Shown: positions 25,563 through 43,550 of the stretch, piece after piece | How the letters are laid out: each line of letters opens with the position of its first letter | Numbering within the stretch: position 1 is the stretch's first letter | From: Acidobacteriaceae bacterium | GTDB lineage: Bacteria; Acidobacteriota; Terriglobia; Terriglobales; Acidobacteriaceae | Assembly (NCBI GenBank): GCA_003160215.1 | Contig: PLQW01000115.1 | Coordinates: 1-46,813, forward strand | Direction of reading: 5' to 3' | Length of the DNA stretch: 46,813 nucleotides | Notes under the pieces: model-generated | Database searches by the model: none | What the model was told of the DNA's origin: nothing | What the model saw: only the letters and a program-made list of their open reading frames with translations | Position numbers and translations under genes: made by a program

Positions 25563-25590
25563 CTGACCACTAACCACTGACCACTGCCTC
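25563..25590. repeat. Heptamer array overlapping the VWA stop codon
   Basis: Four units of 7 bp: CTGACCA, CTAACCA, CTGACCA, CTGCCTC. The last unit contributes two of the three bases of the stop codon of the minus-strand VWA gene (25589-25591). Confidence 0.7.
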
Positions 25591-26833
25591 AATGCACCGT
25601 CTTGGTCTTCCTTGACATGTAGTCCATCAGCAGATACTGGCCCAGGGTGTAGGGGGTGGTGAAGTAGGCTTTGCCGCGGCACATTTCCGTCACCTTCTGC
25701 ACGAACTGGATGAGCCCATAGTCCGAGGCAAGCATGAAGATATTGATCAGGATTCCCGCGCGCTTGCACTTAGAAACTTCTTTCAGGGTCTCGCTCACCA
25801 CCAGCGGATCCAGTCCGAAGGCGTTCTTGTAGATGCGGCCATCCTCCAGGGTGAGCGCCGAGGGTTTGCCATCGGTGATCATCACGATCTGCTTCATGTC
25901 TTTGCGCTGGCGTTGCAAGATGCGCTGCGCCATGCGCAGACCTTCGCGTGTATTGGTGTAGTACGGTCCGACCTTGACACGCGCCAGTTGCGACAGCGGC
26001 AGCTCCTCCGCCGAGTCGTGAAACAGCACCAGCGACAGCGAATCGCCCGGGTATTGCGTGCGGATGAGATGCGAGAGCGCCATGGCAACTTTCTTGGCCG
26101 GCGTGAAGCGGTCCTCGCCATACAGGATCATGGAGTGCGAGCAGTCGAGCATGAGCACGGTCGCGCACGACGATTGGTACTCGCACTGATGCACCTGGAG
26201 ATCGCTGTACTCGATGTTCAGTGGCAGGTGCAGGCCTTCGCGCTGGATCGCACTCGACAACGTCGCGGTGATGTCCAGGTTCAGGGTGTCGCCGAATTCG
26301 TAGGTCTTCGACGCGCCGCTGGCCTCGATGCCAGTGGCAGTGTCGCGCGTGTCGTGGCGGCCGAAGTTCGATTTGCCGAGCGAGCCCAGCAGATCGCGCA
26401 GCGCGCGGAAGCCCAGAAAGTCCAGTCCCTTGTCGGTGATCTCGAAGCGCGCCTGTGATTGGGCGTCACCGACTTGGCCGCCTGCGGTCGAGCTGCGCGA
26501 AGGATCGTGCGGCTGATCGACGTTGATGTAGTTTTCCTGCTCCATGCGGTCGATGACCTGCTCGATCAACTCTTCCATCTGCTCGGGGCTCATGTTCTCG
26601 ATCTGCTCGCGCATCTGCTGGTCGAGCATGTCGCTGTTGAGCAGCGCCTCGGCGATGGCCTGGCGCAGGTCTTCGAGCGTCTGCTCGGCGTCTTTGAGAT
26701 CGTAGAAGTCCTGGTATTGTTGCTGGAACCCGCTCTGCAGCAGGTAGTCGGAGAGCGCGCTGAGCAGGTCCTCCATGCTCATCTCGGAGGCGGGCTCGGG
26801 AACGTATTTTTTGTAGCGAATAAATCGGGCCAT
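25589..26833 (-). CDS. VWA-domain protein, partner of a MoxR-type ATPase
   Basis: A 414-residue cytoplasmic protein (no signal peptide). The N-terminal 130 residues are helical and acidic, rich in Gln, Glu and Met ([20 protein letters not shown]). The C-terminal VWA domain has an intact [15 protein letters not shown] (DxSxS), YYTNTREGL (Thr) and MITDGKP (Asp). The gene lies 98 bp downstream of the AAA ATPase gene (26931-28439) on the same strand. MoxR-type ATPases and VWA proteins form chaperone or chelatase-like pairs in which the ATPase remodels or inserts a cofactor into a target; the target here is unknown. The start codon is directly adjoined by a heptamer array in place of a clear Shine-Dalgarno sequence, which is unusual. 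Confidence 0.88.
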
Positions 26834-26874
26834 TAGCTTTTAGCTCTTAGCGTTTAGCCGTTAGCAACTAGCAA
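26833..26874. repeat. Heptamer array adjoining the VWA start codon
   Basis: Six units: TTAGCTT, TTAGCTC, TTAGCGT, TTAGCCG, TTAGCAA, CTAGCAA. It abuts the VWA start codon (26831-26833) and occupies the place of the ribosome binding site on the minus strand. Confidence 0.75.
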
Positions 26875-26910
26875 TCGCGGACGGAGGCGCTGGATCGCTG
26901 AAGCTTTTCC

Positions 26911-26938
26911 CAGCCCCTAACACCTGGCCCCTAATTGA
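26911..26938. repeat. Degenerate heptamer array over the ATPase stop codon
   Basis: CAGCCCC, TAACACC, TGGCCCC, TAATTGA. The TAG stop of the minus-strand ATPase gene (26931-26933) lies within it. The units are weaker than in other arrays. Confidence 0.45.
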
Positions 26939-28439
26939 ACGGCCTTCTCTGTCTGCGAAACTCGCGCTCCTCGTCGTCCTCATCGCGGATGGGCCGCTTC
27001 TCACGCGGCGGCTGCTTCTCGCCCGCGGTGAACATTCGCTCCTCGCTGCGCCCAATTTTCTTGTGCGCGTACAGGCCTTCGAGAATGAACTCAGCGCCCG
27101 AGACCAGCACCTCCGACGGCTCTTTTCCGCTCAAGCCCAGGCCACTCAATTTGTCCAGCAATCCCTGGATGCCGCGCAGCTTGTGCAGCATTTCCTGCGC
27201 GCTGGCGGAGTCACGCATCTGGATCTCGCCGCCGAGATCGAACCACTGCACTACCTGGCTCATGTTGCTGTTGCCGTGGAAATATTTGTCGTAGGTGCGA
27301 GCGATGGCGGCGCGAATGATCTCGCGCACCACGTTGTCGGCGCCCTTCAGTTCGCCTTCGTATTCCAGTTCGAGTTTGCCGGTCATCGCGGGCAGGGCGG
27401 CGTAAATGTCGCCGATGCGCGGGACCACCAGCTTCTCGCCGGAACGAATGGCGCGCCGCTCGGCGTTGGAGATGACGTTTTCCGTGGCGCTGATGGGCAG
27501 CCGCTGGCTTACTCCGGAGCGCTTGTCGACGCGCTTATCTTCGCGGGCGATGAACGCAATCTGCTCGATCACCTGGCTCACGAACTCGGGAACTTGCAGT
27601 TGCAAGCCGTTGCGCGCCGTCCACGCTTCCTGCGCGGTGATGGCAATGCCTTCTTCGATGGTCACCGGATAATGCGTGCGAATCTCGGAGCCGATGCGGT
27701 CCTTCAGCGGCGTAATGATCTTGCCGCGTGCGGTGTAATCCTCAGGATTGGCGCTGAAGACCAGAGCCACATCGAGCGGCATGCGCACCGGGTAGCCCTT
27801 AATCTGCACATCGCCTTCCTGCATGATGTTGAACAGACCCACCTGGATCTTGCCGGCGAGATCGGGCAGCTCGTTGATAGCGAAGATGCCGCGATTGGCG
27901 CGCGGCAACAGTCCGTAGTGAACCGTGTACTCGCTGCCCAGTTCGTGGCCGCCCTTGGCCGCCTTGATGGGATCGATGTCGCCGATCAGGTCGGCGATGG
28001 TGACGTCCGGGGTCGCCAGCTTCTCCACGTAGCGATCGTCCGCAGCCAGGTAAGAAATTTGCGCGTCGTCGGGATTGTTGGCCAGCAATTCGCGGCAGCG
28101 GCGGCAAATCGGCGCGTAGGGATTGTCGTGGATTTCGCAGCCGCTCAGGTAGGGTAACTGCGGATCGAGTAGCCCCGCAAGTGCGCGCAGGATGCGGCTC
28201 TTCGCCTGTCCGCGCAATCCGAGAAGAATGAAATTATGGCGGGACAATACCGCGTTCACGATTTGCGGCACTACCGTATCGTCGTAGCCGACGATGCCGG
28301 GGAAGATGGGCCCACTTCTGCGCAAGCGCGCGATGAGGTTGTCGCGCATTTCGTCCTTGACGCGGCGATAGCGCACCCGTTGCTCGGAAAACTGCGAGCT
28401 GCTGCGAAGCTCGCCCAGGGTCTGCGGAAGTTTGCTCAA
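26931..28439 (-). CDS. MoxR/ChlI-type AAA+ ATPase (magnesium chelatase-like)
   Basis: A 502-residue AAA+ ATPase. I start it at a TTG (28439) because GGAGGT lies nine bases upstream and the product begins SKLPQTLGELRSSSQFSEQR, which fits the family; longer upstream frames run toward the mechanosensitive channel gene. Walker A is GLRGQAKS (residues 74-81). The Walker B region reads RGIFAINELPDL, with Asn instead of the usual Asp before the Glu, which I recall as normal in this subgroup. A Cys triad C-x10-C-x2-C (101, 112, 115) after Walker A could bind a metal. VFSANPEDYTARGKIITPLK is the sensor region. The C-terminus is highly charged. It should act with the VWA protein encoded next. Confidence 0.88.
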   Translation of the reverse strand: MSKLPQTLGELRSSSQFSEQRVRYRRVKDEMRDNLIARLRRSGPIFPGIVGYDDTVVPQIVNAVLSRHNFILLGLRGQAKSRILRALAGLLDPQLPYLSGCEIHDNPYAPICRRCRELLANNPDDAQISYLAADDRYVEKLATPDVTIADLIGDIDPIKAAKGGHELGSEYTVHYGLLPRANRGIFAINELPDLAGKIQVGLFNIMQEGDVQIKGYPVRMPLDVALVFSANPEDYTARGKIITPLKDRIGSEIRTHYPVTIEEGIAITAQEAWTARNGLQLQVPEFVSQVIEQIAFIAREDKRVDKRSGVSQRLPISATENVISNAERRAIRSGEKLVVPRIGDIYAALPAMTGKLELEYEGELKGADNVVREIIRAAIARTYDKYFHGNSNMSQVVQWFDLGGEIQMRDSASAQEMLHKLRGIQGLLDKLSGLGLSGKEPSEVLVSGAEFILEGLYAHKKIGRSEERMFTAGEKQPPREKRPIRDEDDEEREFRRQRRPFN

Positions 28440-28629
28440 GGGCTGGATACCTCCAGGGTCACGGCCGCCCTCCTCGCACAGCGGACCGAATGATGCCGAA
28501 TGTTCGTATTCTACGCCAGCGACGATCGCACCCGCGCTCGACGGTCGTAAACGCAAGTTGGATTGTCGCAGCAGGAAAGAGGAGCGGTGGGTTTCGTAAG
28601 CCGGAGACGGAAGATGACGTGTTGCGGGG

Positions 28630-31272
28630 TCATTCTCCGGCGACCGGACTCTTGCTGCGGCTCCCCAGTTCAACGTCCGCATCGTTTTCCGCGAAGACAG
28701 ACTTTGCCCCATTGCCTGCCAACAGCCCAGCCGCGGTTGGATCCACCCCGCGCAGGTGAAGATCGCGTTGTGGGAAGGGAATCTCGATGCCCGCCTCGGA
28801 GAGCAGCCGCATGACCTCGAGCGCAACCTCGCTCTTCACCTTTACAACGTTGCTCTCCTGCATCACCCAGAACTGAAGCTCGAAGTTTAGCGCGCTGTCG
28901 CCGAACTCCTTGAAAAAGACGGCGGGTTCGGGCGAGGTGAGGACGTCGGGATGCTGTACCGCGGGCCGCTCCATCAGGTCCTTCACCAGCTTGGGATCGG
29001 TGCCGTACGCCACGCCAACCGGCAGCTCCAGCCGGCGCCTGGCCTCGGAGAGCGTCCAGTTGGTCACGTTGCTGGAGATGAAGGTTGCATTGGGAATGAT
29101 AATCTCGGCGCCCTGGACGGTCTGGACGGTGCTGGCGCGGATGCCGATGCGGGTTATGGTACCGGTCAGGCCAGCCTGAATTTCCACGACATCGCCCACG
29201 CGGATGGGCCGCTCGAATTGCAGGATCAGCCCGGAGACGAAGTTGTTGATGATGTTTTGCAGGCCAAAGCCGACGCCGACCCCCAGGGCGCCGGTGATCA
29301 CGGTGAACTTGTTCAGGGCCACGCCACCCGCGTTCACGGCGAAGAGGAAGACCAGCAGCAGAAGCAAATAGTGCAGAGTGGTCGAAATCAGCTCCGGGAT
29401 ACCGCGCTTCAAGTGCAGGCGCTTGAGCACCTCTTCCCGCAACAGGAAGCGCAGCGAGGTGGAAAATGCAAACCCGGCCAGCAGGATCACCCAAAAACTG
29501 AGCACGCCGCCCAGGGTGATGTTGCCGGAGCCGCCGACGATATTGAAGTTGAACAGCGCAACGATCTGCTGGTTGACCCATGTGCGCACGTTCATCAGGT
29601 CCAGCGTGGCGCCGAGCCACACCAGGGCGCCGGCCCATTGCAACACGCGCGGCACCCAGCGGGCGATGGCCGCACGGTGCAGGCGCACCACCGCCAACCG
29701 CTCAGCCGAAGGCGCTTCGATAGCGGCCAGCAACAGCAGAGTGAAGACGCGTAGTGCAGTGAATGCCGCAAGGGCGATAAAGGTGCTGTAGACGCACAGC
29801 GTGGTCAGAAACTGCGTGAGCTGGTAGTACCCAAATAGGTTTGTCAACTGCGCCAGGGCCAGGACCGCGATGGCCACCCGCGACCCGAAGATAAGGAGCC
29901 TTTGCGGGTCGCTCCGTTTCTCCGCCTCGGCCATGCGCTTAGGCCTGAAGAGATAGGCGAAGAGCACGACCGCCACCGAGGAGCCGAGGAACTGCACCTC
30001 GCGCTTGGCGGCGGACGAGAGCGTGACCCAATTGAGGACAGCGTTGAAGGCGTAAACTCCCGCTACCCAGTACAGTGGCATGCGGAAACGAGGTTCGATC
30101 AGCGGCGGCAACAACACCAGGATGGAAAAAAACGAGAGCAGGATAGCGAGGCCGATCAGCGGCAGAGGCGCCTGACTCGCCAGCAGGATTGCCAGGAGCA
30201 AGGGCGGCAAGAGTCCGAGCGCAAACCAATGCCGCGTGATCCCCAGCGCCCTTGCCTGCGGTTCTCCGGCCGGCTGAATTCCGCGGGTCCTGACCGACAA
30301 CCGGTAGGCGCCGAAGAGCGACAGCAGCAGCAGCACGGCAAGCGTGGAGAATATCCCTGAGTTCTCCTGCGCAAACGACTTAATGCCGATGACACGTGCG
30401 CCGGCGTTGCGAAAGAAATCGGACAGCGGCTCACCCTGCTGCCGGCGCAGGAAAATCTGCCACAGCGGCAGGCTGTCGCGTTGCAACACGCGGTCTTTCA
30501 GTTGCGCGCGCGATTTCGCCAGCCCGTCCATCATCTCGAGCGCCAATTGGTGCTGATTGGCGGCGATCACCTGCAGGTTGACGATCACTCGCAACAGGTC
30601 CTGCGCCTGGGACTGTGTCGTCTGAATGCCTTTGACGGCGTCCCGGATCACGTCGAGCGTGGGCCCGAGGTCGGGGGTCTTCTTGTTTCCCTCCAGGGTC
30701 GCTGTCCATTGCGGCTGCAAGCCCTGCAGTTGCTGCACCGCCGACTGCGCGGCATTGGCCCAATCCAGCAGTTGCCGTCGTGTGGTGGCGCCTTCGGTGG
30801 AGAAGGCGTGCCAGTACGTTTCCTGCTCCCGCAGCTCCAGCGAACTGGGAGATCCAGCCAGCAACGCCTCAACTTCTTTCTTTTTGGCCTGCAACGTGGC
30901 ATCGCGTTCCGTCAGCGTGGCTTTCACGGCATCGAGTTGCTCGCGCGTGGGTAGCTGGCTAACGAGATCGCGCAGCAGGCGCATCAAATCTTCAGCACGG
31001 GTTGCGACATCGGGCAGCGGGATGGCTGTAGGAGGCAGCGCCTCGCCGGGCGGAGGGGGCGCAGGAGTGGATTGGCTGGCTGGCGAAGCGGTCTTGTTGC
31101 CTAGGAGCGAGCTCAGAGGGTTGCTTGCCAAGGAGCCGCCCGGCTGGGCCACTGCCGATGCCGTGAGGCACAGCAGGATCGCCAACAGGATTAGGCTAGC
31201 TGCGTGCGCGGCCCTTGCGCTACTGCGCACCACACTTGCCAATGAAATTTGCTGAAACATGCTTTCGCCCAT
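28630..31272 (-). CDS. Large MscS-family mechanosensitive channel
   Basis: An 880-residue inner-membrane channel protein. After a signal-like segment and a Pro/Ala-rich linker comes a periplasmic coiled-coil region (about 85-280), then many transmembrane helices (about 310-640). The conserved MscS core includes the pore helix TGALGVGVGFGLQNIINNFV, SGLILQFERPIRVGDVVEIQ, and the beta domain GTITRIGIRASTVQTVQGAE with IIPNATFISSNVTNW. The size and layout resemble MscK/YbdG-type large members that gate on tension or ions. Two starts are possible (31272 and 31260, four codons apart); neither has a strong ribosome site. It is divergent from the M48 protease at 31484. Confidence 0.9.
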   Translation of the reverse strand: MGESMFQQISLASVVRSSARAAHAASLILLAILLCLTASAVAQPGGSLASNPLSSLLGNKTASPASQSTPAPPPPGEALPPTAIPLPDVATRAEDLMRLLRDLVSQLPTREQLDAVKATLTERDATLQAKKKEVEALLAGSPSSLELREQETYWHAFSTEGATTRRQLLDWANAAQSAVQQLQGLQPQWTATLEGNKKTPDLGPTLDVIRDAVKGIQTTQSQAQDLLRVIVNLQVIAANQHQLALEMMDGLAKSRAQLKDRVLQRDSLPLWQIFLRRQQGEPLSDFFRNAGARVIGIKSFAQENSGIFSTLAVLLLLSLFGAYRLSVRTRGIQPAGEPQARALGITRHWFALGLLPPLLLAILLASQAPLPLIGLAILLSFFSILVLLPPLIEPRFRMPLYWVAGVYAFNAVLNWVTLSSAAKREVQFLGSSVAVVLFAYLFRPKRMAEAEKRSDPQRLLIFGSRVAIAVLALAQLTNLFGYYQLTQFLTTLCVYSTFIALAAFTALRVFTLLLLAAIEAPSAERLAVVRLHRAAIARWVPRVLQWAGALVWLGATLDLMNVRTWVNQQIVALFNFNIVGGSGNITLGGVLSFWVILLAGFAFSTSLRFLLREEVLKRLHLKRGIPELISTTLHYLLLLLVFLFAVNAGGVALNKFTVITGALGVGVGFGLQNIINNFVSGLILQFERPIRVGDVVEIQAGLTGTITRIGIRASTVQTVQGAEIIIPNATFISSNVTNWTLSEARRRLELPVGVAYGTDPKLVKDLMERPAVQHPDVLTSPEPAVFFKEFGDSALNFELQFWVMQESNVVKVKSEVALEVMRLLSEAGIEIPFPQRDLHLRGVDPTAAGLLAGNGAKSVFAENDADVELGSRSKSPVAGE

Positions 31273-31483: not shown

Positions 31484-32866
31484 ATGCGCTCTTCTCAGCT
31501 CCCCATGAAGGTAGCCGCGCTGTTGCTGGCGATTGCGTTGGCGGCGCCGCAAACCGTGGAGGCGCGCTTCAAGCCGTCCACCAGCTCCGACGCGTTCGCG
31601 CGCGACCAGGAGATCCAAATCGGACAACAGGTGGCGGCTGAAACCAACAAGAAGCTACCGCTTCTGCCCGATAGCGATCCCATCACCAAATATGTGCAAC
31701 AGTTGGGCGCGAAGTTGGTGGTGCATGCTCCCGGGGAGAAGTGGCCGTACACCTTCCATGTGATCAATCAGAAGGAGACCAATGCTTTTGCGATTCCCGG
31801 TGGTCCCATCTGTATCAACCTGGGAACCATTCAGGCAGCCGATAATGAAGCGCAACTAGCTGGCGTGATTTCGCATGAAACTTCTCACATCGTGCTGCGC
31901 CATGGCACCCGCGCGGCAACGAAGCAGATGGAGGCGCAACTGCCATTGCAGATTTTGGGCGCTCTCATCGGTGGTTCCGGAATCCTGGCTCAATTGACGC
32001 TGATGGGCATTAGCTTCGGCGTTGGGTCGTATTTTCTGCACAATTCCCGGCAATCTGAGAACGAAGCCGACCTGATGGGCACCGACATCATGTACGACAC
32101 CGAATACGATCCCAGACAGATGGCCGAGTTCTTCCGCAAGCTTGAGGCGCAAGGCAACGCAGGCATTCAGTTCCTCAGCGATCACCCCAATCCAGGGAAT
32201 CGCGTTCAGTCCGTGAACAACGAGGTCGCCACCCTCCCGCCGAAGCACTTGGTCGAAAACACGCCGGAGTTCAAGCGCGTAAAACAGCTTGCGATGGCGC
32301 GGCATCCGCTGACGGCGGAGCAGATCGAGGAGGGCCAGGGAGTAGCGCCAGGCCAGTCAACCGTCGCAATTAGCGGCTCGATTCCCGCGCCCAACGGCGA
32401 CCTCCAGACCTTGAGCAATATTGCCTTCGAAATAGGCTATCCCTCGAACTGGAAAGTGTACGGCGATCCGTCGTCCTCGGTGACCATCGCGCCGGATGGC
32501 GGAGTGGCGCAGAATGCGGTGGCTTACGGGGTCATCATCGACGATTTCCAGCCCGAGACCAACCTGTCACTCGACGCGGCCACACATCAATTGATTACCA
32601 ACCTGCGGCAGTCGAATCCCGGCCTGCGAACTGTGGGCAGCGATGAAAGCATTCGCGTGAACGGCGTGCCGGGCCGCTCGCAAGAGATGATCGGGACTTC
32701 GCCCATCAAGCAAGGCAATCAGGCTTTGCAGGAGCGCGACTGGCTGGTGACCACGCAGCGCGCGGACGGAATAGTGATCTACCTGGTATTCATCGCACCC
32801 GAGAAGGACTTCTCGAAGCTGCGCCCAACGTTCGAGCAGATGCTGCGAAGCTTTAAGGAAAAATAG
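31484..32866 (+). CDS. Exported M48-family metalloprotease with C-terminal extension
   Basis: A 460-residue zinc metalloprotease with an N-terminal signal (MKVAALLLAIALAAPQTVEA; this Met is the eighth residue, so the real start could be 31505). The zinc site is HETSH at residues 131-135; the third ligand is in SRQSENEADLMGTDIMYDTE. A helical hairpin of hydrophobic residues (LPLQILGALIGGSGILAQLT) lies between them, as in LoiP/BepA-like proteases. After FLSDHPNPGNRVQSV, a C-terminal domain of about 160 residues follows (PSNWKVYGDPSSSVTIAPDG), which may recognise substrates or membranes. It differs in sequence and domain content from the M48 protein at 18591, so it is not a recent duplicate. Its stop codon is joined to a heptamer array. 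Confidence 0.9.
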   Translation: MRSSQLPMKVAALLLAIALAAPQTVEARFKPSTSSDAFARDQEIQIGQQVAAETNKKLPLLPDSDPITKYVQQLGAKLVVHAPGEKWPYTFHVINQKETNAFAIPGGPICINLGTIQAADNEAQLAGVISHETSHIVLRHGTRAATKQMEAQLPLQILGALIGGSGILAQLTLMGISFGVGSYFLHNSRQSENEADLMGTDIMYDTEYDPRQMAEFFRKLEAQGNAGIQFLSDHPNPGNRVQSVNNEVATLPPKHLVENTPEFKRVKQLAMARHPLTAEQIEEGQGVAPGQSTVAISGSIPAPNGDLQTLSNIAFEIGYPSNWKVYGDPSSSVTIAPDGGVAQNAVAYGVIIDDFQPETNLSLDAATHQLITNLRQSNPGLRTVGSDESIRVNGVPGRSQEMIGTSPIKQGNQALQERDWLVTTQRADGIVIYLVFIAPEKDFSKLRPTFEQMLRSFKEK

Positions 32867-32893
32867 TTTCGAGTTTCAAGTTTCCAGTTTCAA
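32866..32893. repeat. Heptamer array at the M48 stop codon
   Basis: GTTTCGA, GTTTCAA, GTTTCCA, GTTTCAA. The first G is the last base of the TAG stop. It is the left arm of a 260-bp unit whose right arm is at 33096-33123. Confidence 0.8.
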
Positions 32894-33095
32894 GTGGACG
32901 GATGAACTTGGCTGGTGACCATCAGCCGGGTATGCGGGGAAAATCCTCTAGGCTCAAAGACGTGACAGAGGTGGGTTCAGGAATGGAGGAAAGGCGAAAA
33001 TCAGGCCCCTCGACTCGCGCCACGACCGCGTCAAATGCGGTCGCGGCGCTCCCTCGGGATGAAAGATTCATGAAACGAGTTCTACGCAATGAACA
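32894..33095. other. Core of a composite intergenic unit
   Basis: Non-coding DNA between two inverted heptamer arrays and between convergent genes. It contains CGCCACGACCGCG, CGGTCGCGGCGCTCCCTCGG, a sequence with close matches in the second composite unit at about 40186-40212. GACCGCG and CGCGGTC-like segments can fold back on each other. Confidence 0.5.
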
Positions 33096-34645: not shown

Positions 34646-35686
34646 ATGTTGCTCCACCGATTTCGCCAGTTCGCTGCCGTCCTAGGCCTCATTCTGGTCT
34701 CCAGCCTGGGGATCGCGGCCCAGTCGCAAAATCCGCCGCCGCAGCCGCTGGCTCAAGATCAGCAGTCACAGGCGCCCGCCGAGGACGATAACCTGCAGAC
34801 CTTCAAGGCGCAGGTGAACGTCGTCAACCTGTTCTTCAACGTGAAGGACAAACACGGCATGCTGATTCCCAACCTCACCAAGGCTGACTTCGAGGTGCTG
34901 GAGGACGGGAAGCCGCAAACCATCAAATATTTCTCGGCGGAATCGAACCAGCCGTTGACCTTGGGTATCATGATTGACACCAGCGCCAGCCAGACCCGCG
35001 TTTTGGACATTGAGCAGACGTCCTGCGCCGAGTTTCTGCACAGCGTTCTGCGCAACAAGGACTTGGCCTTTGTCATCAACTTCGACGTGGATGTGGACCT
35101 CGATCAGGATTTCACCAACAACGTGCACGATCTGACCAGGGCACTTAACAGGATGCAAATCAATGCCGGGATGGGCGGAGGTCCGCCGGGATTGGGCGGT
35201 GGCCCGATTCCAACTACCCCGCGGGGCACGCTTCTGTATGACGCCATCTACCTCGGCGCCAACGACAAGTTGAAGAACGAAGTTGGACGCAAGGCCATGA
35301 TTGTGTTTACCGATGGCGAGGACCAGGGTAGCCGCTTGCGAATTCAGGACGCCATCGAAGCCGCGCAAAAAGCCGACACCATTTGCTACGTGATCCTGAT
35401 TGCCGATCGCGGATTCTACGGCGGCTTCGGTTACAGTGGCGACTACGACATGAAGAAGCTGGCCGAACAAACCGGCGGCCGTGTCATCGAGGTTGGCAAC
35501 AAGCAGGAGAAGCTGCGCCAGGCCTTCGACCAGATCCAGAACGAATTGCGCAGCCAGTACAACATTGGCTACACACCAACCAATAATAAGCTCGACGGCA
35601 GCTATCGCAAGATCCAGGTTCGTGCCAAGGGCGGGGAGTATAAGGTGCAGGCCCGCCAGGGCTACTACGCTATGGCCAAGGACTGA
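34646..35686 (+). CDS. VWFA-related acidobacterial domain protein (short)
   Basis: A 346-residue exported protein with a signal peptide (FAAVLGLILVSSLGIAAQ) and a Gln/Pro linker. The family order is complete: VNVVNLFFNVKDKHGMLIPN, LTKADFEVLEDGKPQTIKYF, the MIDAS in LGIMIDTSASQ (intact DxSxS), VFTDGEDQGSRLRIQDAI, and the C-terminal RSQYNIGYTPTNNK and KVQARQGYYA. A Gly/Pro-rich loop (MGGGPPGLGGGPIP) is inserted in the VWA domain. AGGAAAGAGAAGC precedes the ATG. It lacks the long linker and tail of the divergent neighbour, and only this copy keeps a canonical MIDAS, so the two probably differ in metal-dependent binding. Confidence 0.9.
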   Translation: MLLHRFRQFAAVLGLILVSSLGIAAQSQNPPPQPLAQDQQSQAPAEDDNLQTFKAQVNVVNLFFNVKDKHGMLIPNLTKADFEVLEDGKPQTIKYFSAESNQPLTLGIMIDTSASQTRVLDIEQTSCAEFLHSVLRNKDLAFVINFDVDVDLDQDFTNNVHDLTRALNRMQINAGMGGGPPGLGGGPIPTTPRGTLLYDAIYLGANDKLKNEVGRKAMIVFTDGEDQGSRLRIQDAIEAAQKADTICYVILIADRGFYGGFGYSGDYDMKKLAEQTGGRVIEVGNKQEKLRQAFDQIQNELRSQYNIGYTPTNNKLDGSYRKIQVRAKGGEYKVQARQGYYAMAKD

Positions 35687-35692
35687 AAAGCA

Positions 35693-35741
35693 GGGGTTAG
35701 GGCTAGGGGTCAGTGATTAGTGGATAGCCGGTGGCGGATAG
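35693..35741. repeat. Heptamer array after the short VWFA gene
   Basis: GGGGTTA, GGGCTAG, GGGTCAG, TGATTAG, TGGATAG, CCGGTGG, CGGATAG, beginning six bases after the stop codon. In the sense strand of the gene most units end in Y-A-G. Confidence 0.65.
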
Positions 35742-35928: not shown

Positions 35929-36107
35929 CTCAGAAATCGCGAAACCGGACATTATTTGTGCAGCACTCAATAACCCCGTCGATACTTAGCCATAGCATTC
36001 GTTTCCCAGATTTCGATCGTCATCCTGAGTTCGGTAGTGCCGACCTTCGTCCGCGTATCTCCACCCTGTCTCGGTTTGTCACAGCTATAAGAAGCACGCA
36101 AAGATCA

Positions 36108-36187
36108 GCCCCGAATGGGGCGAAAGAGCTTAGCCCAGCGCGTTAGCGCTGGGTGAACTGGGAAATAAGACCGAGTCCCGCAGGGAC
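36108..36187. repeat. Triple-hairpin dispersed-repeat-like element
   Basis: Three consecutive short hairpins: GCCCC-GAAT-GGGGC (36108-36121), CCCAGCGC-GTTA-GCGCTGGG (36134-36153) and GTCCC-GCA-GGGAC (36175-36187). I recall very similar strings dispersed in genomes of Acidobacteria and related phyla. The element ends 30 bp before the stop codon of the minus-strand gene at 36218. Confidence 0.55.
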
Positions 36188-36836: not shown

Positions 36837-36872
36837 GATAATGAGTTTTTTTCATAAGCAATCATTGGCCCG

Positions 36873-36921
36873 CTGACTGCTGACTGCTGACTGCTGATTG
36901 CTGATTGCCAACTGCTAGCTA
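36873..36921. repeat. Heptamer array overlapping the aspS stop codon
   Basis: CTGACTG three times, CTGATTG twice, CCAACTG, CTAGCTA. The last three bases (CTA, 36919-36921) are the TAG stop of aspS on the minus strand. Confidence 0.85.
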
Positions 36922-38727
36922 CAGGTCCTTCTTTCCCACCACCGCAATCCCCAACTCCTTCAACTGACGCTCGCTCACCGGAGTCGGAGCGTCCACCATC
37001 AGGTCGATCGCCTTCGCCGTTTTGGGGAAGGGAATCACCTCGCGCAGGCTTTCCGCGCCCGCCAGGATCATCACGATACGGTCCAGCCCCAGCGCGATGC
37101 CGCCGTGCGGCGGAGTGCCGTATTGCAGTGCCTCGAGGAAGAAGCCGAAGCGCGCCTGTTGCTCCTCGGGAGACATGCCCATTGCCTTGAAGATTTTGCT
37201 CTGGATGTCCTGGCGGTGAATACGAATCGAGCCTGAGCCCAGTTCAGTTCCGTTGAGCACCACGTCGTAGGCCAACGCACGCACGCCGCCCGGATCGCTC
37301 TCCAGCTTGTCCATGTCCTGCTCGTGCGGCGAGGTGAAGGGATGGTGCGCCGCGTTCCAGCGCTGCTCCGTTTCGTCCCATTCGAACATGGGGAAGTCGG
37401 TCACCCACAGCAGTCGGAAGTTGCCATGCTTGTAAGCGCCGTGGCGCTCGGCATACCTCTGCCCCAGCGCGAGACGAAGTTGTCCCGCGGCGGAATAGAC
37501 TCCATAGGCCTGTTGCCCTGACTTCACGGCGCTTGCTGGTTCAGTGCGCTTTGCACCGGCCACAATAACCACCAGGTCTTCGGGATTCGGTTTCGCAAGC
37601 TCGCGAATCTTTGCTACTGCCTCGGGGAAGGATTTCTCCAGCCGCTTGAGGTCCTCGAAGACTTTGGCGTCCTTGCGATCGCCAAACATCGCCTTGATCT
37701 CGTCGCGCTCCTTGCGCGAAAGCTCGCCCACTTTCGGGATGACGATCGCGACAACCGGTAGCTCGGAATCGACGTGCAGCGTCTCCAGGTTCTCCGCCGC
37801 GAACGCCTCGCGCACGTGGGTCATCGCGGGCAAGCGCAGGTCGGGCTTGTCGATGCCATACAGCCGGATCGCCTGGTCGTAGCTCGTCTGCGGAAACGGC
37901 GTTGCCAGATCGACGCCGATGGTCGCAAATGCCGCCTTCAGAAAACCTTCGACCGTGTGGAAGACGATCTCCGGCCGCGCAAAGCTGATCTCCAAATCGA
38001 TCTGGGTGAACTCTGGCTGGCGGTCGGCGCGCAGGTCTTCGTCGCGGAAGCAGCGCACGATCTGGAAGTATTTATCGAAGCCCGAGATCATCAGGATCTG
38101 TTTGAACAACTGCGGCGACTGCGGCAGCGCGTAGAACTTCCCGGCATGCACGCGGCTGGGCACCAGATAGTCGCGCGCGCCTTCGGGCGTGGAGCGGGTC
38201 ATGAACGGCGTCTCGATTTCGTAGAAGCCCTGCGCGTTCAGATGGTCGCGAATGGCGATGGCAACCTGGTGGCGCAGTTCGATGTTGCGATGCAGCTCGG
38301 GCCGGCGCAGGTCGATATAGCGATACTTGAGACGCACCTCTTCGTTGGCCAGCACCGCATCGCTGGGCGAAAACGGCAGCGGCTTGCAGTCGTTCAGCAC
38401 GCGTAACTCGTCGGCAATCACCTCGATCTCGCCCGTCGGAATGTTCTTGTTTACGGTGTTTGCGTCGCGTAGCTTCACGTGGCCCAGGACGGCAACCACA
38501 AACTCGGAGCGCACCGCGGTCGCCCGGTCGTGGACTTCGGCGCCGGCATCGGCGGTGATAACAACCTGCGTAACGCCGCTGCGGTCGCGCAGATCGAGGA
38601 AGATGAGATTGCCGAGATCGCGCCGCCGGTTCACCCATCCCATGAGCACAACTTTGGAGCCGGCGTCGGAAGCGCGCAACTCGCCACACATATGAGTACG
38701 TTTCAGGTTACCTAGAAAATCGAGCAT
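36919..38727 (-). CDS. aspS: Aspartyl-tRNA synthetase
   Basis: A 602-residue class IIb aminoacyl-tRNA synthetase that charges tRNA-Asp. The anticodon-binding OB fold (GWVNRRRDLGNLIFLDLRDR) is followed by the catalytic core with QSPQLFKQILMISGFDKYFQ and CFRDEDLRADRQPEFTQIDL (motif 2), the bacterial GAD insertion, and motif 3 in GIALGLDRIVM. Length is typical of bacterial enzymes. I start at the ATG 38727, because MLDFLGNLKRTHMCGEL fits the family; a Met at 38802 would encode three near-identical RILI/TRIL repeats from tandem DNA repeats. It follows hisS on the same strand, a pairing common in bacteria. Whether it also charges tRNA-Asn cannot be judged from this window. Confidence 0.96.
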   Translation of the reverse strand: MLDFLGNLKRTHMCGELRASDAGSKVVLMGWVNRRRDLGNLIFLDLRDRSGVTQVVITADAGAEVHDRATAVRSEFVVAVLGHVKLRDANTVNKNIPTGEIEVIADELRVLNDCKPLPFSPSDAVLANEEVRLKYRYIDLRRPELHRNIELRHQVAIAIRDHLNAQGFYEIETPFMTRSTPEGARDYLVPSRVHAGKFYALPQSPQLFKQILMISGFDKYFQIVRCFRDEDLRADRQPEFTQIDLEISFARPEIVFHTVEGFLKAAFATIGVDLATPFPQTSYDQAIRLYGIDKPDLRLPAMTHVREAFAAENLETLHVDSELPVVAIVIPKVGELSRKERDEIKAMFGDRKDAKVFEDLKRLEKSFPEAVAKIRELAKPNPEDLVVIVAGAKRTEPASAVKSGQQAYGVYSAAGQLRLALGQRYAERHGAYKHGNFRLLWVTDFPMFEWDETEQRWNAAHHPFTSPHEQDMDKLESDPGGVRALAYDVVLNGTELGSGSIRIHRQDIQSKIFKAMGMSPEEQQARFGFFLEALQYGTPPHGGIALGLDRIVMILAGAESLREVIPFPKTAKAIDLMVDAPTPVSERQLKELGIAVVGKKDL

Positions 38728-38739: not shown

Positions 38740-38792
38740 GATAAGAATACGCGTTGAGATAAGAATACGAGTCTGGATAAGAACACGTGTTT
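38740..38792. repeat. Three 18-bp direct repeats in the aspS leader
   Basis: GATAAGAATACGCGTTGA (38740-38757), GATAAGAATACGAGTCTG (38758-38775) and GATAAGAACACGTGTTT (38776-38792) follow each other with an 18-bp period. On the aspS strand the shared core is CGTATTCTTATC. They end 13 bp upstream of the aspS start. Confidence 0.75.
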
Positions 38793-38797
38793 GAAGA

Positions 38798-38819
38798 GGC
38801 ACGGCTTTGAAGCCGTGCC
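38798..38819. terminator. Perfect hairpin between hisS and aspS
   Basis: GGCACGGCTT and AAGCCGTGCC form an almost uninterrupted 22-bp palindrome. A CTTTT run follows on the plus strand, where no gene ends; on the minus strand there is no good U-tract. It may be a dispersed repeat or a processing site rather than a terminator of hisS. Confidence 0.35.
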
Positions 38820-38853
38820 CTTTTAAACCTTGCGCAGGTCCAAGGGTTTATCG

Positions 38854-40134: not shown

Positions 40135-40142
40135 AGAGAACA

Positions 40143-40170
40143 GTTTCTAGTTTCTAGTTTCTAGTTGGCC
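40143..40170. repeat. Heptamer array in the hisS leader
   Basis: GTTTCTA three times, then GTTGGCC. It lies eight bases from the hisS start codon and forms the left arm of a composite unit whose right arm is at 40254-40274. Confidence 0.8.
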
Positions 40171-40253
40171 TTGGAAAGTCTCTCGCCACGACCGCCGCCG
40201 CTCCCTTGGCGGTTAATGCGGTTCTGTTTCGGCTAGACGAACCGCCGATCGGT
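40171..40253. other. Core of the second composite intergenic unit
   Basis: Non-coding DNA between inverted heptamer arrays. CTCGCCACGACCG and CGCTCCCTTGG match the core of the unit at 32894-33095 (CGCCACGACCG and CGCTCCCTCGG), although this copy is shorter. Confidence 0.5.
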
Positions 40254-40274
40254 CTTGAAACTTGAAACTATTTT
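40254..40274. repeat. Heptamer array over the carbonic anhydrase-like stop codon
   Basis: CTTGAAA, CTTGAAA, CTATTTT. The CTA of the third unit (40268-40270) is the TAG stop codon of the minus-strand gene. Confidence 0.75.
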
Positions 40275-40786
40275 CTCCTCTCCGCCAGATAATTTTCCTT
40301 GTAGCCCAAATAATTGCGGGCATAGCGCAGGATCGTCTCCTGGTCCGCGTCGCTCAACTGCTTGCGCACCTTGCCGGGAACACCCATCACCAGCGAGCCA
40401 GGCTCGATGACAGTCCCCTCGGGAATCACCGTGCCGGCCGCAATAATTGATCCTGCTCCGATGCGCGCTCCATTTAGGATGACGACGCCCATCCCGATCA
40501 GGCAGCGGTCTTCGACGACGCAGCCGTGCAGCGTGACCGAATGCCCCACCGTCACCCAATCGCCGACGATCACGGGCCACTGGTTCAGCATGCCGTGCAG
40601 CACGCTGCAATCCTGGATGTTGCTGTTGGCGCCCACCCGAATGAAATGTACGTCGCCGCGTAGCACTGCGTTCATCCAGACGCTGGCGTTCTCGCCCAGC
40701 ACCACGTCGCCGATCAACTGGGCCGACTCGTCGACGTAGCACGACGGCGGGATAGTTGGGCTGATTCCTTTGTAGGAGCGGATCAT
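40268..40786 (-). CDS. Gamma-carbonic anhydrase-like hexapeptide protein
   Basis: A 172-residue left-handed beta-helix protein of the gamma-carbonic anhydrase family (PaaY/YrdA/CaiE group). The hexapeptide pattern runs from ESAQLIGDVVLGENASVWMN to NGARIGAGSIIAAGTVIPEG. Probable zinc-site residues are seen in LRGDVHFIRVGANSNIQD, CSVLHGM and VTVGHSVTLHGC, the usual positions of the three His ligands at trimer interfaces. A C-terminal helix (DQETILRYARNYLGYKENYL) packs on the helix. Many family members are weak or inactive as anhydrases, so the enzymatic role is uncertain. It lies upstream of hisS on the same strand, separated by a composite repeat unit. Confidence 0.88.
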   Translation of the reverse strand: MIRSYKGISPTIPPSCYVDESAQLIGDVVLGENASVWMNAVLRGDVHFIRVGANSNIQDCSVLHGMLNQWPVIVGDWVTVGHSVTLHGCVVEDRCLIGMGVVILNGARIGAGSIIAAGTVIPEGTVIEPGSLVMGVPGKVRKQLSDADQETILRYARNYLGYKENYLAERRK

Positions 40787-41470
40787 ATTTACATTTACAC
40801 CAGTTTAGGTCGCACCGTTTCGCTGAACAGACTGCCGAAAAAAGCGACACTCGGGTAGAGCGGGCCTTCAGGGCCGCCTCCAAGCTATTCATTTTTGTCA
40901 TCTCGAGCCGGCTTTAGTCCGCGAGAGATCTGCTTTTCCGACCCTTTCCGCACCCTGTAGAGCCAGTTCAGCCTATAACATTGCGCCCAGCAGCGAGCGG
41001 CGGCCTGAACGCAGACGAGCCATCACCCACCGGAGGCCATGTCATTGAGCCTGCAAGTCTTTGAAAATACCACGCCGCAAGCGTGAAGCGAAATGAAAGC
41101 CAGCCGCGTCTGATACCAGTCGTAGCTTGTTGGGGGGTTTGTATGGGGTTCTTCCAGTCAAACTCTGATTTTCATGCGGTGCAAATCAGAGGCCCTTCGG
41201 TTGCACCGTCGCCAAAAGTAGCACGACTTTGATACCAGAAACCGGATCGTCGACGATGCTAAGTCCTTACGCACCAGTCACCTGAAAGTCGTCTACGACG
41301 TTTTCGGCATGGGCAAAACTATGATCTTGGGATACAACACCGCTAGCGTCTCTTCCGCCGTTGATACAGCAACAACTTTGTTCACTGGCCTAACCTTGAA
41401 ACTGAACGGCAGCACCGGCGGCAGTTTGCATTTGAGAATCGACTCCACGCTGGAAGAATCGGAGACTTGG
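40787..41470. other. Long gap with repeat fragment and alternative hairpins
   Basis: No gene is supported. At 40895-40937 a partial TTGTCATT-type element occurs (TTGTCATCTCGAGC, then GAGAGATCTGCTTTT). Two mutually exclusive inverted repeats lie at 41163-41208 (listed separately). The open frame of the response regulator extends upstream to 41309, but its first 54 residues have no domain character. Confidence 0.5.
41163..41208 (+). promoter_or_regulatory. Two mutually exclusive hairpins upstream of the response regulator
   Basis: Stem 1: CTCTGATTT (41163-41171) with AAATCAGAG (41183-41191). Stem 2: CGGTGCAA (41177-41184) with TTGCACCG (41201-41208). Both are perfect and share bases 41183-41184, so they cannot be fully formed together. 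This is the layout of a switching leader, but it lies about 260 bp upstream of the chosen start, and no ligand or terminator is evident. Confidence 0.35.
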
Positions 41471-41830
41471 ATGAACGCAGTCCGCCAGAAAACGGTGCTC
41501 TGTGTTGACGACGAGGCCATTGGTCTGCGAGTGCGAAAGATCATGCTGGAGAACCATGGTTTCCAGGTGCTCACCGCCAGCGATGGGCAACAAGGGATAG
41601 CTCTCTTCGAGCAGAACGCTGTTGACTTGGTCGTGCTCGACTTCTACATGCCGGGCCTCAGCGGGAGGCAGGTAGCTGCCGAAATGCGCCGCCGCCGGCC
41701 CACCGTTCCTATCATTTTTCTGTCGGCGTACTTCTCCCTGCCGTCCGATGCGCTAGAGATGGCCGACGCGTTCATTACCAAGGGCGAACTGCCCGAGGTG
41801 CTCATCGAAAAAATTGAGCAACTCCTGTGA
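41471..41830 (+). CDS. Single-domain response regulator
   Basis: A 119-residue receiver domain without output domain (CheY-like). The acidic pocket is in VLCVDDEAIG, the phospho-acceptor Asp in LVVLDFYMPGLSG, the switch Ser in IIFLSAYFS, and the conserved Lys in FITKGELPE. The Met at 41471 has GGAG six bases upstream. No histidine kinase is encoded in the window, so the partner is unknown; output is probably by protein-protein contact. It is convergent with ubiX. The inverted repeat GGCAGGC/GCCTGCC (41838-41863) lies between the two genes and may help end both transcripts. Confidence 0.9.
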   Translation: MNAVRQKTVLCVDDEAIGLRVRKIMLENHGFQVLTASDGQQGIALFEQNAVDLVVLDFYMPGLSGRQVAAEMRRRRPTVPIIFLSAYFSLPSDALEMADAFITKGELPEVLIEKIEQLL

Positions 41831-41876
41831 AGGGAAGGGCAGGCGATTCCCGAACTGCCTGCCACTGCAACCAGCC

Positions 41877-42491
41877 TTACTCGCCCTTCCACTGATAGGC
41901 GTCGGGTTGCGGCAGTCCCACATGCGCCAGCACGCGGTTGACGAACTCGCGTGCGATCTCCTCGGTCGAGACCGGGCGGAAATAAAACGCTGGGATGACC
42001 GGAAAGATGGTCGCTCCCGCTTCCGCGGCGAGCGTCATGTTGCGCAGGTGGATAAGATTGAACGGCGTTTCGCGCACACACAAGATCAACGCCCGGCGCT
42101 CCTTCAGACAGACATCGGCGGCGCGCTCGATGAGCTGGATCGCCATTCCATTGGCGATGCGCGCCAGTGATCCTACGCTGCAAGGCAGCACGATCATGGC
42201 GTCGGTCCGGTAGGAACCACTGGCCACGTTGGCCCCGATATCCGCATTGTTCTGCTGGCGGATTTTCTGCGAAGCTCGCCCCAGCAGCTTGTCGATCAAC
42301 TGGTTGCGGCCGGATAGCTGAAGTTCTTGGGCCATCACCCGCAAGCCGCTGTCGGAGAGAATAAGATTGACGGTTGCGACGCGCTCGTCGCGGTCCAGCG
42401 CATCCAGCAGGTGCTTAGCAAAGATGGAGCCGCTGGCGCCAGTGACGGCCACGGTCAAGGTTCGCGGTGCAATAGCGGTCTGAGCGTGCAT
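41877..42491 (-). CDS. ubiX: UbiX-family flavin prenyltransferase
   Basis: A 204-residue flavoprotein that should attach dimethylallyl phosphate to FMN to form prenylated FMN, the cofactor of UbiD-type decarboxylases. FMN-binding motif GASGSIFAKHLLDAL is near the N-terminus, followed by MIVLPCSVGSLARIANGMAI, RAADVCLKERRALILCVRET and PFNLIHLRNM, and PVIPAFYFRP near the end, all family hallmarks. Length is normal. No ubiD lies in the window. It is divergent from larB, so the two may share a control region (42492-42648) that contains a heptamer array. Confidence 0.93.
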   Translation of the reverse strand: MHAQTAIAPRTLTVAVTGASGSIFAKHLLDALDRDERVATVNLILSDSGLRVMAQELQLSGRNQLIDKLLGRASQKIRQQNNADIGANVASGSYRTDAMIVLPCSVGSLARIANGMAIQLIERAADVCLKERRALILCVRETPFNLIHLRNMTLAAEAGATIFPVIPAFYFRPVSTEEIAREFVNRVLAHVGLPQPDAYQWKGE

Positions 42492-42583
42492 CTAAGCTTC
42501 ACATCGTACCACTCGGTCGTGGTCGGTTTCGGCAACGAGACGGGTGGCACATGCGTTCCCTTGTCAGGACTTGCATCTTGAGT

Positions 42584-42646
42584 CTCGAAACTTGAAACTA
42601 GAAACTCGAAACTATTCACTAACCCCTAGCCCCTAGTCCCTAACTT
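42584..42646. repeat. Heptamer array directly upstream of larB
   Basis: Nine units: CTCGAAA, CTTGAAA, CTAGAAA, CTCGAAA, CTATTCA, CTAACCC, CTAGCCC, CTAGTCC, CTAACTT. It joins the two main array types (GAAAC-type and TAACCCC-type) and ends two bases before the larB ATG, in the place of a ribosome binding site. Confidence 0.85.
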
Positions 42647-42648
42647 TC

Positions 42649-43398
42649 ATGACTTCCGACGCCATCAAGAAACTGTTCGACCAGGTAAAGCGAGGCAAGC
42701 TCTCTCCCGACGAAGCGGTGCAGCGGCTGCGGCATCTTCCTTTCGAGGACCTGGGCTTCGCCAATGTAGACCATCACCGAACGTTGCGTGTAGGCATGCC
42801 CGAAGTCATCTTCGGACCAGGAAAAACTCCGCGGCAGTTCGCGGAGATTTTCGCGCGCCTCGCGCAACCCGGCCACAACGTGCTGGCGACCCGCGTTTCG
42901 CCCGAGCAGTTTCGCGCGGTGAAGCGCAAGTTTCGCAAGGCCACATTCCACGAGCTGGCGCGCGCCATCACGCTGACCCAGGACGAGACTGTTTACGGCA
43001 AAGGAACAATCGTCGTGGTTTCTGCCGGGACCAGCGACATTCCGGTTGCCGAGGAAGCGGTGGTCACCGCGCAAGCCATGGGCAACGAGGTGCAGCACGT
43101 GTACGACGTGGGAGTCGCCGGCATCCATCGGCTGCTGGCCCGCCGTGAAGCGCTGACGCGGGCGCGCGTGGTGATCGTCTGCGCCGGAATGGAAGGGGCG
43201 CTGCCCAGCGTGGTTGGCGGCCTCGTTGGTGTGCCGGTGATTGCGGTGCCCACCAGCGTCGGTTATGGCGCGTCGTATAAGGGAATCGCAGCGCTGCTCG
43301 GCATGTTGAACTCCTGCGCGTCAAATGTCAGCGTGGTGAACATTGACAATGGCTTCGGCGCAGGCTACGTCGCCTCCATCATCAATCGGCTGGAGTAG
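42649..43398 (+). CDS. larB: LarB, pyridinium-3,5-biscarboxylate mononucleotide synthase
   Basis: A 249-residue protein of the LarB family, related to AIR carboxylase (PurE). LarB carboxylates nicotinate adenine dinucleotide at the start of nickel-pincer nucleotide synthesis for lactate racemase and related enzymes. The N-terminal domain has [20 protein letters not shown] and FGPGKTPRQ; the catalytic domain has [36 protein letters not shown] and [15 protein letters not shown], and ends with [20 protein letters not shown]. The Cys in LNSCA is the expected reactive residue. No larC, larE or larA lies in the window, so partners must be elsewhere or the gene is an orphan. A heptamer array replaces a clear Shine-Dalgarno sequence. 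Confidence 0.93.
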
Positions 43399-43402
43399 TT
43401 CA

Positions 43403-43451
43403 GTTGGCGGTAGCCAGTAGCCAGTAGCCAGCAGCCGGTTGCCAGTTGCCG
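43403..43451. repeat. Heptamer array after larB
   Basis: GTTGGCG, GTAGCCA three times, GCAGCCG, GTTGCCA, GTTGCCG, beginning four bases after the larB stop codon. Confidence 0.85.
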
Positions 43452-43508
43452 AACCGGACGCGTCCGCCGTACCCGGGTAGTGCGTGCTTAAAAGGGCGTG
43501 TGAGAACC

Positions 43509-43550
43509 CTAACCCCTAGCCCCTAACCTCTAGCCCCTGCTCCCTGCCTT
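43509..43550. repeat. Heptamer array over the purB stop codon
   Basis: CTAACCC, CTAGCCC, CTAACCT, CTAGCCC, CTGCTCC, CTGCCTT. The CTA at 43530-43532 is the TAG stop of purB, and the array also encodes the last residues of the protein. Confidence 0.8.

What the first reader, a model, noticed from the sequence alone, without database searches (positions are those of the whole stretch)
25563..43550. A family of degenerate heptamer (7-bp period) arrays in intergenic gaps
At least twelve gaps or gap edges carry runs of 3-9 units with a strict 7-bp period but different unit sequences: CTGACCA, TTAGCNN, GTTTCNA, GGGNTAG, CTGACTG, CTNGAAA, CTANCCC and GTAGCCA (25563, 26833, 26911, 32866, 33096, 35693, 36873, 40143, 40254, 42584, 43403, 43509). 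Read in one orientation most units end in Y-A-R. Cyanobacterial STRR repeats also have heptameric units; I know of no description of a family with this diversity in Acidobacteria. Shared period with divergent units suggests a common generating mechanism rather than transposition of one sequence.
Basis: partly seen in the sequence, partly recalled or inferred. Interest (0 to 1): 0.8.

Follow-up and report, generated by a model that had tools for sequence, protein, structure and literature searches.

The report
Paired 7-letter repeat arrays bounding genes
Many gaps between genes in this soil bacterium are bordered, close to the gene ends, by mirror-image runs of a 7-letter DNA word, and the two runs of a gap often carry the same word even where related species use another; similar repeats are known elsewhere, but how they arise is not.

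Summary
Lag-7 similarity peaks sharply in intergenic DNA here and in relatives. The arrays form five unit families. At the left edge of a gap an array reads one strand (AGTTTCN, CAGTTGC, TTAGCNN, TTCGCNN, TAGGGGT), at the right edge the other, whatever the genes' direction: 150 of 159 edge arrays, 44 of 44 in loci not picked for arrays, 21 of 21 in held-out loci. Arrays crowd gene ends, most tightly stop codons. The two arrays of a gap share a family in 26 of 41 pairs (11.7 expected), those flanking one gene in 2 of 14. At the hisS gap the family differs between species, mostly on both sides. So the evolving unit is the gap with an inverted pair. Pairs in divergent gaps argue against a purely RNA role; four of five families lack G-runs, against G-quadruplexes. 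Rehm 2015 (PMC4692102) reported this layout for one G-rich heptamer in Xanthomonas: a new variant of a known kind. The strand rule seems clade-specific: a blind prediction in two distant genomes failed. The mechanism, DNA fold-back, is inferred, not shown.

The parts
25563..25586 (-). right-edge array, CTGACCA/CTAACCA units (F5 by profile), 2 bp before the stop codon of the gene at 25589
   Evidence: array at the same edge in G005
26833..26874 (+). left-edge array, TTAGCNN units (F4), touching the start codon of the gene 25589-26833
   Evidence: present with partly changed NN letters in G005
26911..26935 (-). right-edge remnant, CCCTAAC/CCTGGCC/CCCTAAT; not significant alone (P 0.118), but a longer array sits at this place in G005
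32865..32895 (+). left-edge array, AGTTTCN x4 (F1); its first AG completes the TAG stop codon
33095..33118 (-). right-edge array, CTNGAAA (F1), inverted partner of 32865
35693..35727 (+). left-edge array, GGGGTTA/GGGCTAG/GGGTCAG/TGATTAG/TGGATAG units (F5-like, assigned by eye), after the stop at 35686
36872..36916 (-). right-edge array, CTGACTG/CTGATTG (F4), at the stop of the class II (D, K, N type) tRNA synthetase gene 36919-38727
40142..40166 (+). left-edge array, AGTTTCT x3 (F1), 7 bp from the hisS start codon
40254..40269 (-). right-edge array, CTTGAAA x2 (F1), inverted partner of 40142
   Evidence: P 0.024
42569..42613 (-). right-edge array, CTNGAAA (F1), upstream of the AIR carboxylase gene 42649-43398
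42619..42642 (-). right-edge array, CTAGCCC/CTAACCC (F5 by eye), next to the start codon and in the same 7-bp register as 42569-42613; G005 and G007 have other units here
43403..43450 (+). left-edge array, GTAGCCA/GTTGCCA (F2), after the AIR carboxylase gene
   Evidence: arrays of other length at this edge in G005 and G007
43507..43538 (-). right-edge array, CTAACCC/CTAGCCC (F5), overlapping the stop of the lyase gene (43530)

Best explanation
Shown: the arrays are gap-edge arrays whose strand is set by the edge; where both edges carry one, they form an inverted pair, tend to carry the same unit family, and the family can differ between species, mostly on both arms. Inferred: the arms evolve together through DNA fold-back. 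When the gap is single-stranded in replication or repair, the arms pair (hairpin or cruciform), and slipped or template-switched synthesis in 7-nt steps adds units and converts one arm towards the other. Ectopic pairing with same-family arrays elsewhere supplies new families. Purifying selection on the neighbouring genes, not a regulatory function, sets the outer limit at gene ends.
For: Edge rule: 150 concordant, 9 discordant of 159 edge arrays among 218; loci not picked for arrays 44 and 0; held-out loci 21 of 21. In-gap neighbours: 38 of 52 are left +, right -, none the reverse. Family match within gaps 26 of 41 pairs in G000 and G005 (shuffled 11.7), across genes 2 of 14 (shuffled 3.4). 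Divergent gaps: 6 of 7 with a same-family pair; 5 of 6 once L020 is dropped, whose left gene is tandem in my first gene calls; there no single transcript should hold both arms. hisS gap, families by eye: F1/F1 in four species, F2/F2 in G002, F2+F4 with F4 in G008 and G001; on a two-protein tree this needs, counted by hand, at least two changes between F1 and F2. At L109 19206 the right arm is AGGGG-type in G000 and AGTGG-type in G005, and the left arm leans the same way. Nearly spacer-less palindromes exist (G007 hisS gap; G005 L046).
Against: If arms copied each other, the free letter N should match between arms; in F1 it does not (10 pairs, permutation P 0.78), nor clearly in F6 (3 pairs, P 0.16), though F4 arms resemble each other (9 pairs, P 0.004). 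Within F1 arrays N is redrawn from unit to unit (0.68 differ, 0.63 expected if independent) and the other six letters hardly vary, which slippage alone does not give. 15 of 41 pairs carry different families, and without F1-F1 pairs 18 of 37 match; many loci were picked for F1, and only 8 pairs come from loci not picked (6 match). Many arrays have no partner detected. Fold-back does not by itself explain why arrays touch gene ends.
Confidence: 0.38

Rival explanations
1. RNA-level selection: the arms form stem-loops at transcript ends (termination, processing, mRNA protection, coupling), so the pair is kept complementary by selection.
For: hisS gap transcripts fold far better than shuffles in three of five species folded (z -7.2 G005; -7.7 G007 and -5.1 G001), less in G008 (-2.6) and G000 (-2.5). 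Similar roles are suggested for cyanobacterial STRR hairpins (PMC2670836, passages read).
Against: Same-family arms also in divergent gaps (6 of 7; 5 of 6 without L020); N letters of F1 arms not alike beyond chance; many arrays have no partner detected; a stable fold follows trivially from inverted arrays.
Confidence: 0.2
2. Mobile palindromic (foldback, MITE- or REP-like) elements whose arms are heptamer arrays, inserted into gaps.
For: Dispersed families, inverted arms, patchy taxonomic spread (CAGYNNT arrays in 85 of 297 phylum genomes); array-less orthologous gaps are shorter across the genus (median 45 against 221 bp, 7 gaps).
Against: No shared core: 12 of 16 spacers have no other hit in about 1 Mb; presence at a gap is conserved between two species (9 both, 52 neither, 9 in one only; Fisher P 8e-6) and there the array-less gaps are not shorter (163 against 171 bp, 7 gaps). 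Target duplication was not looked for.
Confidence: 0.15
3. Ordinary slippage: 7 bp is a favoured slippage step of the polymerase and arrays expand and decay locally.
For: Copy number differs between orthologous arrays; in F2 and F4 neighbouring units resemble each other; proposed in the literature for heptamers (cited in PMC4692102, Discussion read).
Against: In F1 and F6 the variable letter is independent between adjacent units while the core stays constant; slippage does not predict edge orientation or matched arms.
Confidence: 0.15
4. A protein that binds single-stranded DNA or RNA in 7-nt steps with one unread letter (cold-shock or S1 type) keeps the units constant.
For: One or two free positions per unit in F1, F4 and F6, the rest nearly constant; such proteins are proposed for TAACTGA in Beggiatoaceae (PMC4679880, abstract).
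Against: Five families in one genus; the strand facing the gene is opposite at 5' and 3' gene ends; divergent gaps included.
Confidence: 0.09
5. G-quadruplex elements, as proposed for Xanthomonas GGGAATC and Nostoc GGGGA(C/T)T.
For: One family here, F5 TAGGGGT, is G-rich, with the G-rich strand at left edges as in Xanthomonas.
Against: F1, F2, F4 and F6 have no run of three G in their consensus yet obey the same edge rule. No folding of quadruplexes was computed.
Confidence: 0.03

Closest known systems
GGGAATC / GGGGA(C/T)T heptamer arrays of Xanthomonas and Nostoc (Rehm et al. 2015, PMC4692102; abstract and sections 3, 10, 11, 13, 16 read)
   Same: Period 7, intergenic, variable letters at fixed unit positions, closer to the 5' neighbouring ORF whatever its direction (the same edge rule), some overlap stop codons, 70 and 75 convergent inverted pairs in two Xanthomonas genomes (few in Nostoc), length and sequence variation between species at the same genes.
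   Different: There one G-rich family, read as G-quadruplex. Here five families, four without G-runs; both sides of a gap tend to share a family; the family differs between species.
TAACTGA heptamer repeats of Beggiatoaceae, cyanobacteria, Bacteroidetes (MacGregor 2015, PMC4679880; abstract, sections 7 and 10 read)
   Same: Intergenic heptamers, in the Beggiatoa genome mostly ending next to start codons; by inspection the strand there (rotated to GATAACT) resembles my right-edge forms.
   Different: One exact unit; mostly 5' of genes; interpreted as translational control; 8 of 22 intergenic sets sampled in Microcystis lie reversed relative to a start codon, against my rule.
Cyanobacterial STRR
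   Same: Usually 7-bp repeats, intergenic, said to form hairpins (PMC2670836, passages read).
   Different: In 250 kb of a Trichormus plasmid I found 8 intergenic arrays; 2 resembled my families enough to orient (both concordant), too few for a test.
Tandem heptamers of prokaryotes in general (SPADE, PMC6344855, passages read)
   Different: No layout relative to gap edges in the passages read.
REP palindromes (PMC3733652; start of abstract and passages read)
   Same: Intergenic and palindromic; related tyrosine transposases are reported in Acidobacteria.
   Different: Compact 20-40 bp stem-loops with GTAG or CGTC tags, not tandem heptamers.

Membership tests
Rehm-type gap-edge heptamer arrays | tandem unit of 7 bp, intergenic | tested here: met
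Rehm-type gap-edge heptamer arrays | a given strand lies near the ORF on its 5' side, whatever the ORF's direction | tested here: met
   150 of 159, 44 of 44 in loci not picked, 21 of 21 in held-out loci
Rehm-type gap-edge heptamer arrays | convergent inverted pairs | tested here: met
   38 of 52 in-gap neighbours, none reversed
Rehm-type gap-edge heptamer arrays | G-rich unit able to form G-quadruplex | tested here: not met
   only F5 of five families has a G-run in its consensus
Cyanobacterial STRR | the same unit sequences as the described STRR | not tested
   STRR unit sequences recalled, not fetched
TAACTGA repeats | exact TAACTGA unit | tested here: not met
   not the consensus of any of the five families; not searched for as such
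MITE / foldback transposon | copies share terminal repeats and some core | tested here: not met
   12 of 16 spacers without other hit in about 1 Mb
MITE / foldback transposon | target-site duplication, empty sites | not tested
   no strain-level genomes at hand; species pairs too diverged
REP/BIME | 20-40 bp palindrome with GTAG or CGTC tag | tested here: not met
   units are 7-bp tandem arrays with inverted arms 15-384 bp apart; tags not searched for
Phase-variable SSR | hypervariable copy number within a strain or species | not testable with these tools
   one genome per species; one array pair is identical between two species at 91% DNA identity

The most novel reading that the evidence does not exclude
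The arrays are written, not copied: after a break or gap in intergenic DNA, an unknown enzyme with a 7-nt internal template extends both DNA ends with the same unit, misreading one template position, much as telomerase does in organisms with variable telomere repeats (recalled). This would explain at once the same strand on both ends, the shared family, the independent N letters and the private spacers.
Probability: 0.05. Interest if true: 0.97.

Novelty: new variant of a known kind. Interest (0 to 1): 0.58.

Why it matters
Heptamers are called the most abundant intergenic tandem repeats in a wide range of prokaryotes, with no clue to function (PMC6344855, passages read). These data recast the question: the evolving object looks like the gap with two inverted arms, not a single array, and explanations tied to one sequence (G-quadruplex, one binding protein, one transposon) do not cover it. 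That makes the generating process testable by strain sequencing of a few gaps.

Tried and rejected
Global alignment of all arrays to a single unit: real shared signal (score 4.39 against 2.57 for permuted units) but it mixes strands and showed no edge rule; replaced by family-wise orientation (one search stopped with a script error after printing its first table). The sign of each family was chosen after seeing edges (five binary choices); the held-out loci guard against that.

Gene-centred inverted repeats: rejected, 2 of 14.

Reverse transcriptase as writer: PF00078 does not track arrays; G002, G007 and G018 are array-rich with no match, though G007 is only 82% and G002 90% complete.

Blind prediction failed: two distant genomes, G101 and G271, showed reversed order for CAGYNNT. 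I predicted tRNA genes between the arrays; none was found. The two places that I read are inverted pairs using the opposite strand of the unit, in G101 right after the stop of an ORF. So which strand faces the gene seems clade-specific, while the inverted layout is kept. A third place (L252) was fetched and tested only for RNA genes.

Whole-gap insertion: across the genus, array-less orthologous gaps were shorter (median 45 against 221 bp, 7 gaps), but not between G000 and G005 (163 against 171 bp, 7 gaps).

Heptamer query against plasmids: no match (low-complexity filter is on).

Limits: loci L001-L020 and L041-L050 were mostly picked for F1 hits, so family frequencies are biased. Genes were called with my own script; two versions disagree at L020, where the second lost a long gene, so one of seven 'divergent' gaps is probably tandem. 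The tree rests on two proteins. One conserved array pair (L013/L048) lies where my script calls coding sequence and is not in the intergenic counts.
Full report
Setting. The window is contig C51 (bases 1-46813) of a 5.34 Mb draft genome in 292 contigs.

Observation. The lag-7 peak is sharp and intergenic: in 619 kb of stretches of this genome not picked for arrays, 15 intergenic and 0 coding runs at lag 7, against 0, 1, 0 and 1 intergenic runs at lags 5, 6, 8 and 9. Coding DNA shows mainly lags that are multiples of three. The same holds in 80 hisS loci of relatives (lag 7: 36 intergenic, 2 coding; lag 8: 6 intergenic).

Families and edge rule. I took 195 intergenic arrays (at least 16 of 21 matches at lag 7) from loci of this genome, its congeners and more distant relatives and clustered their units without using position: five families cover 186 of the 195: F4 TTAGCNN/CAGCNNT (60), F1 AGTTTCN (51), F2 CAGTTGC (34), F6 TNTTCGC (25), F5 TAGGGGT (16). 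Within each, strand depends on which edge of the gap the array lies at. With 23 further arrays from 20 held-out G005 loci (218 in all), 150 edge arrays agree and 9 do not; the rest are mid-gap (23), between close edges (16), or could not be placed (20). It makes no difference whether the gene presents its start or its stop. In loci not picked for arrays, 44 agree and none disagrees. In the held-out G005 loci alone, with families and signs fixed beforehand, 21 of 21 agree; in 77 loci of other genera, 16 agree and 2 do not among the 18 edge arrays that resemble a family well enough (25 of 45 arrays reached that score).

Contact with genes. 44.5% of 164 arrays lie within 5 bp of a gene end, 8% expected for random placement in the same gap. 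Stop codons are hugged (99 arrays, median 2 bp), start codons less so (83 arrays, median 27 bp); at 32865 the array's AG completes a TAG stop. Gaps of 30-800 bp with arrays are tandem (81 of 682), convergent (22 of 186) and divergent (17 of 227).

The gap is the unit. Of 52 neighbouring array pairs in one gap, 38 are left-plus, right-minus, none the reverse, 13 same-strand, 1 unassigned. In G000 and G005, inverted pairs in a gap share a family in 26 of 41 cases (shuffled mean 11.7, none of 3000 reaching it); arrays on the two sides of one gene do not (2 of 14, shuffled 3.4). Over all genomes, leaving out F1-F1 pairs, 18 of 37 match; in loci not picked for arrays, 6 of 8. Divergent gaps show it too, 6 of 7, or 5 of 6 after dropping L020, whose left gene my first gene calls put in tandem; there one RNA should not contain both arms. 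Spacers between inverted arms are 15-384 bp; 12 of 16 tested have no other hit in about 1 Mb of the genome.

Evolution. Upstream of hisS, eight of the nine genomes of the genus could be read (G003 lacks the stretch), and all eight have a left array within about 8 bases of the start codon; families here are assigned by eye. F1 is in G000, G005, G007 and G004, F2 in G002, G008, G001 and G006. The right array matches in family in the four F1 species and in G002 (where the contig ends nearby and the neighbouring sequence is another); in G008 and G001 it matches a second, inner left array (F4); G006 has no right array. On a two-protein tree G002 lies with G008, and G004 with G001, G003 and G006, with one inner node weakly supported; counted by hand, at least two changes are needed. 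In G005 and G007 the innermost unit of the F1 array is AGTTGCC, an F2 unit, which suggests overwriting. Between G000 and G005, array presence is conserved by gap (9 both, 7 and 2 in one only, 52 neither; Fisher P 8e-6), while unit number and family turn over; at L109 19206 the right arm is AGGGG-type in one species and AGTGG-type in the other, and the left arm leans the same way. Yet one array pair is letter-for-letter identical in the two species in 91% identical DNA (my gene calls make that place coding), so turnover is episodic.

How units vary. Inside F1 arrays one letter, N, varies and the other six hardly do (1-7% between neighbours). N differs between neighbours in 0.68 of 93 pairs, 0.63 expected if drawn afresh; F6 behaves alike, whereas in F2 and F4 neighbours do resemble each other. 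In that second test the core was fixed by the search pattern; the first, without a fixed core but with a score threshold, agrees. Plain slippage followed by decay would spread changes over all seven letters and make neighbours alike, so it is not enough for F1 and F6. Against my own preferred mechanism, N letters of F1 arms in one gap are no more alike than arms of different gaps (P 0.78, 10 pairs); F4 arms are (P 0.004, 9 pairs).

Spread. F1 triplets occur in 17 of 297 sampled phylum genomes; CAGYNNT arrays in 85 of 297 (59 of 167 genera), but in some genomes the reversed control pattern is as common, so those are not specific. At the two places read in distant genomes the inverted layout is kept with the opposite strand of the unit, against my prediction. 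In this genome an octamer pattern (CACGGAGG) has 41 matches, and its 4 close pairs (each within 500 bp) all run plus then minus: the layout may not depend on period 7.

Known kinds. Rehm et al. 2015 (PMC4692102, sections read) describe GGGAATC arrays in Xanthomonas with the same edge rule and 70 and 75 convergent inverted pairs, and propose G-quadruplexes. Four of the five families here have no G-run in their consensus and obey the same rule. MacGregor 2015 (PMC4679880; abstract, sections 7 and 10) describes TAACTGA arrays next to start codons, but also reversed sets in Microcystis that do not fit my rule. SPADE (PMC6344855, passages) calls intergenic heptamers the most abundant tandem repeats of a wide range of prokaryotes with no clue to function. 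Geobacter metallireducens has heptanucleotide arrays too (PMC2700814, passages). I therefore file this as a new variant of a known kind.

Verdict. Layout, orientation, gap-level matching and turnover are shown here. The fold-back mechanism is inferred, at about 0.38; rivals are not exclusive of each other. The bold alternative, template-directed writing of both ends of a break, is not excluded but has no enzyme candidate: reverse transcriptase matches (PF00078) do not track arrays.

Noticed in passing
window 36107-36153 (-); also L009 15041-15087 (-) and 15215-15260 (+), L013 2065-2114, L049 9272-9319: Acido-Lenti-1 RNA (RF01687) occurs several times in this genome and once in the G005 loci scanned, once as an opposed pair about 130 bp apart, which looks more like a dispersed repeat than a single sRNA gene.
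   Followed up: partly
L147 4001-5659, L153 4001-5650 (hisS of G007 and G008), also G001: Histidyl-tRNA synthetase carries an in-frame insertion of about 125 residues near residue 77, absent from G000; the Pfam search of the G007 and G008 proteins showed only synthetase-related families.
   Followed up: partly
41 matches in G000, e.g. C271:22935 (+) and 23116 (-); ortholog gap L020 7930-8127 / L047: CACGGAGG octamer arrays; 4 of 4 close pairs run plus then minus.
   Followed up: partly
80 hisS loci L145-L224: A smaller lag-8 and lag-16 excess (6 and 9 intergenic runs) accompanies the lag-7 peak.
   Followed up: no
window 42569-42642: Two unit families (CTNGAAA and CTANCCC) abut in the same 7-bp register; the gene-proximal part is the one that differs most in G005 and G007.
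   Followed up: yes
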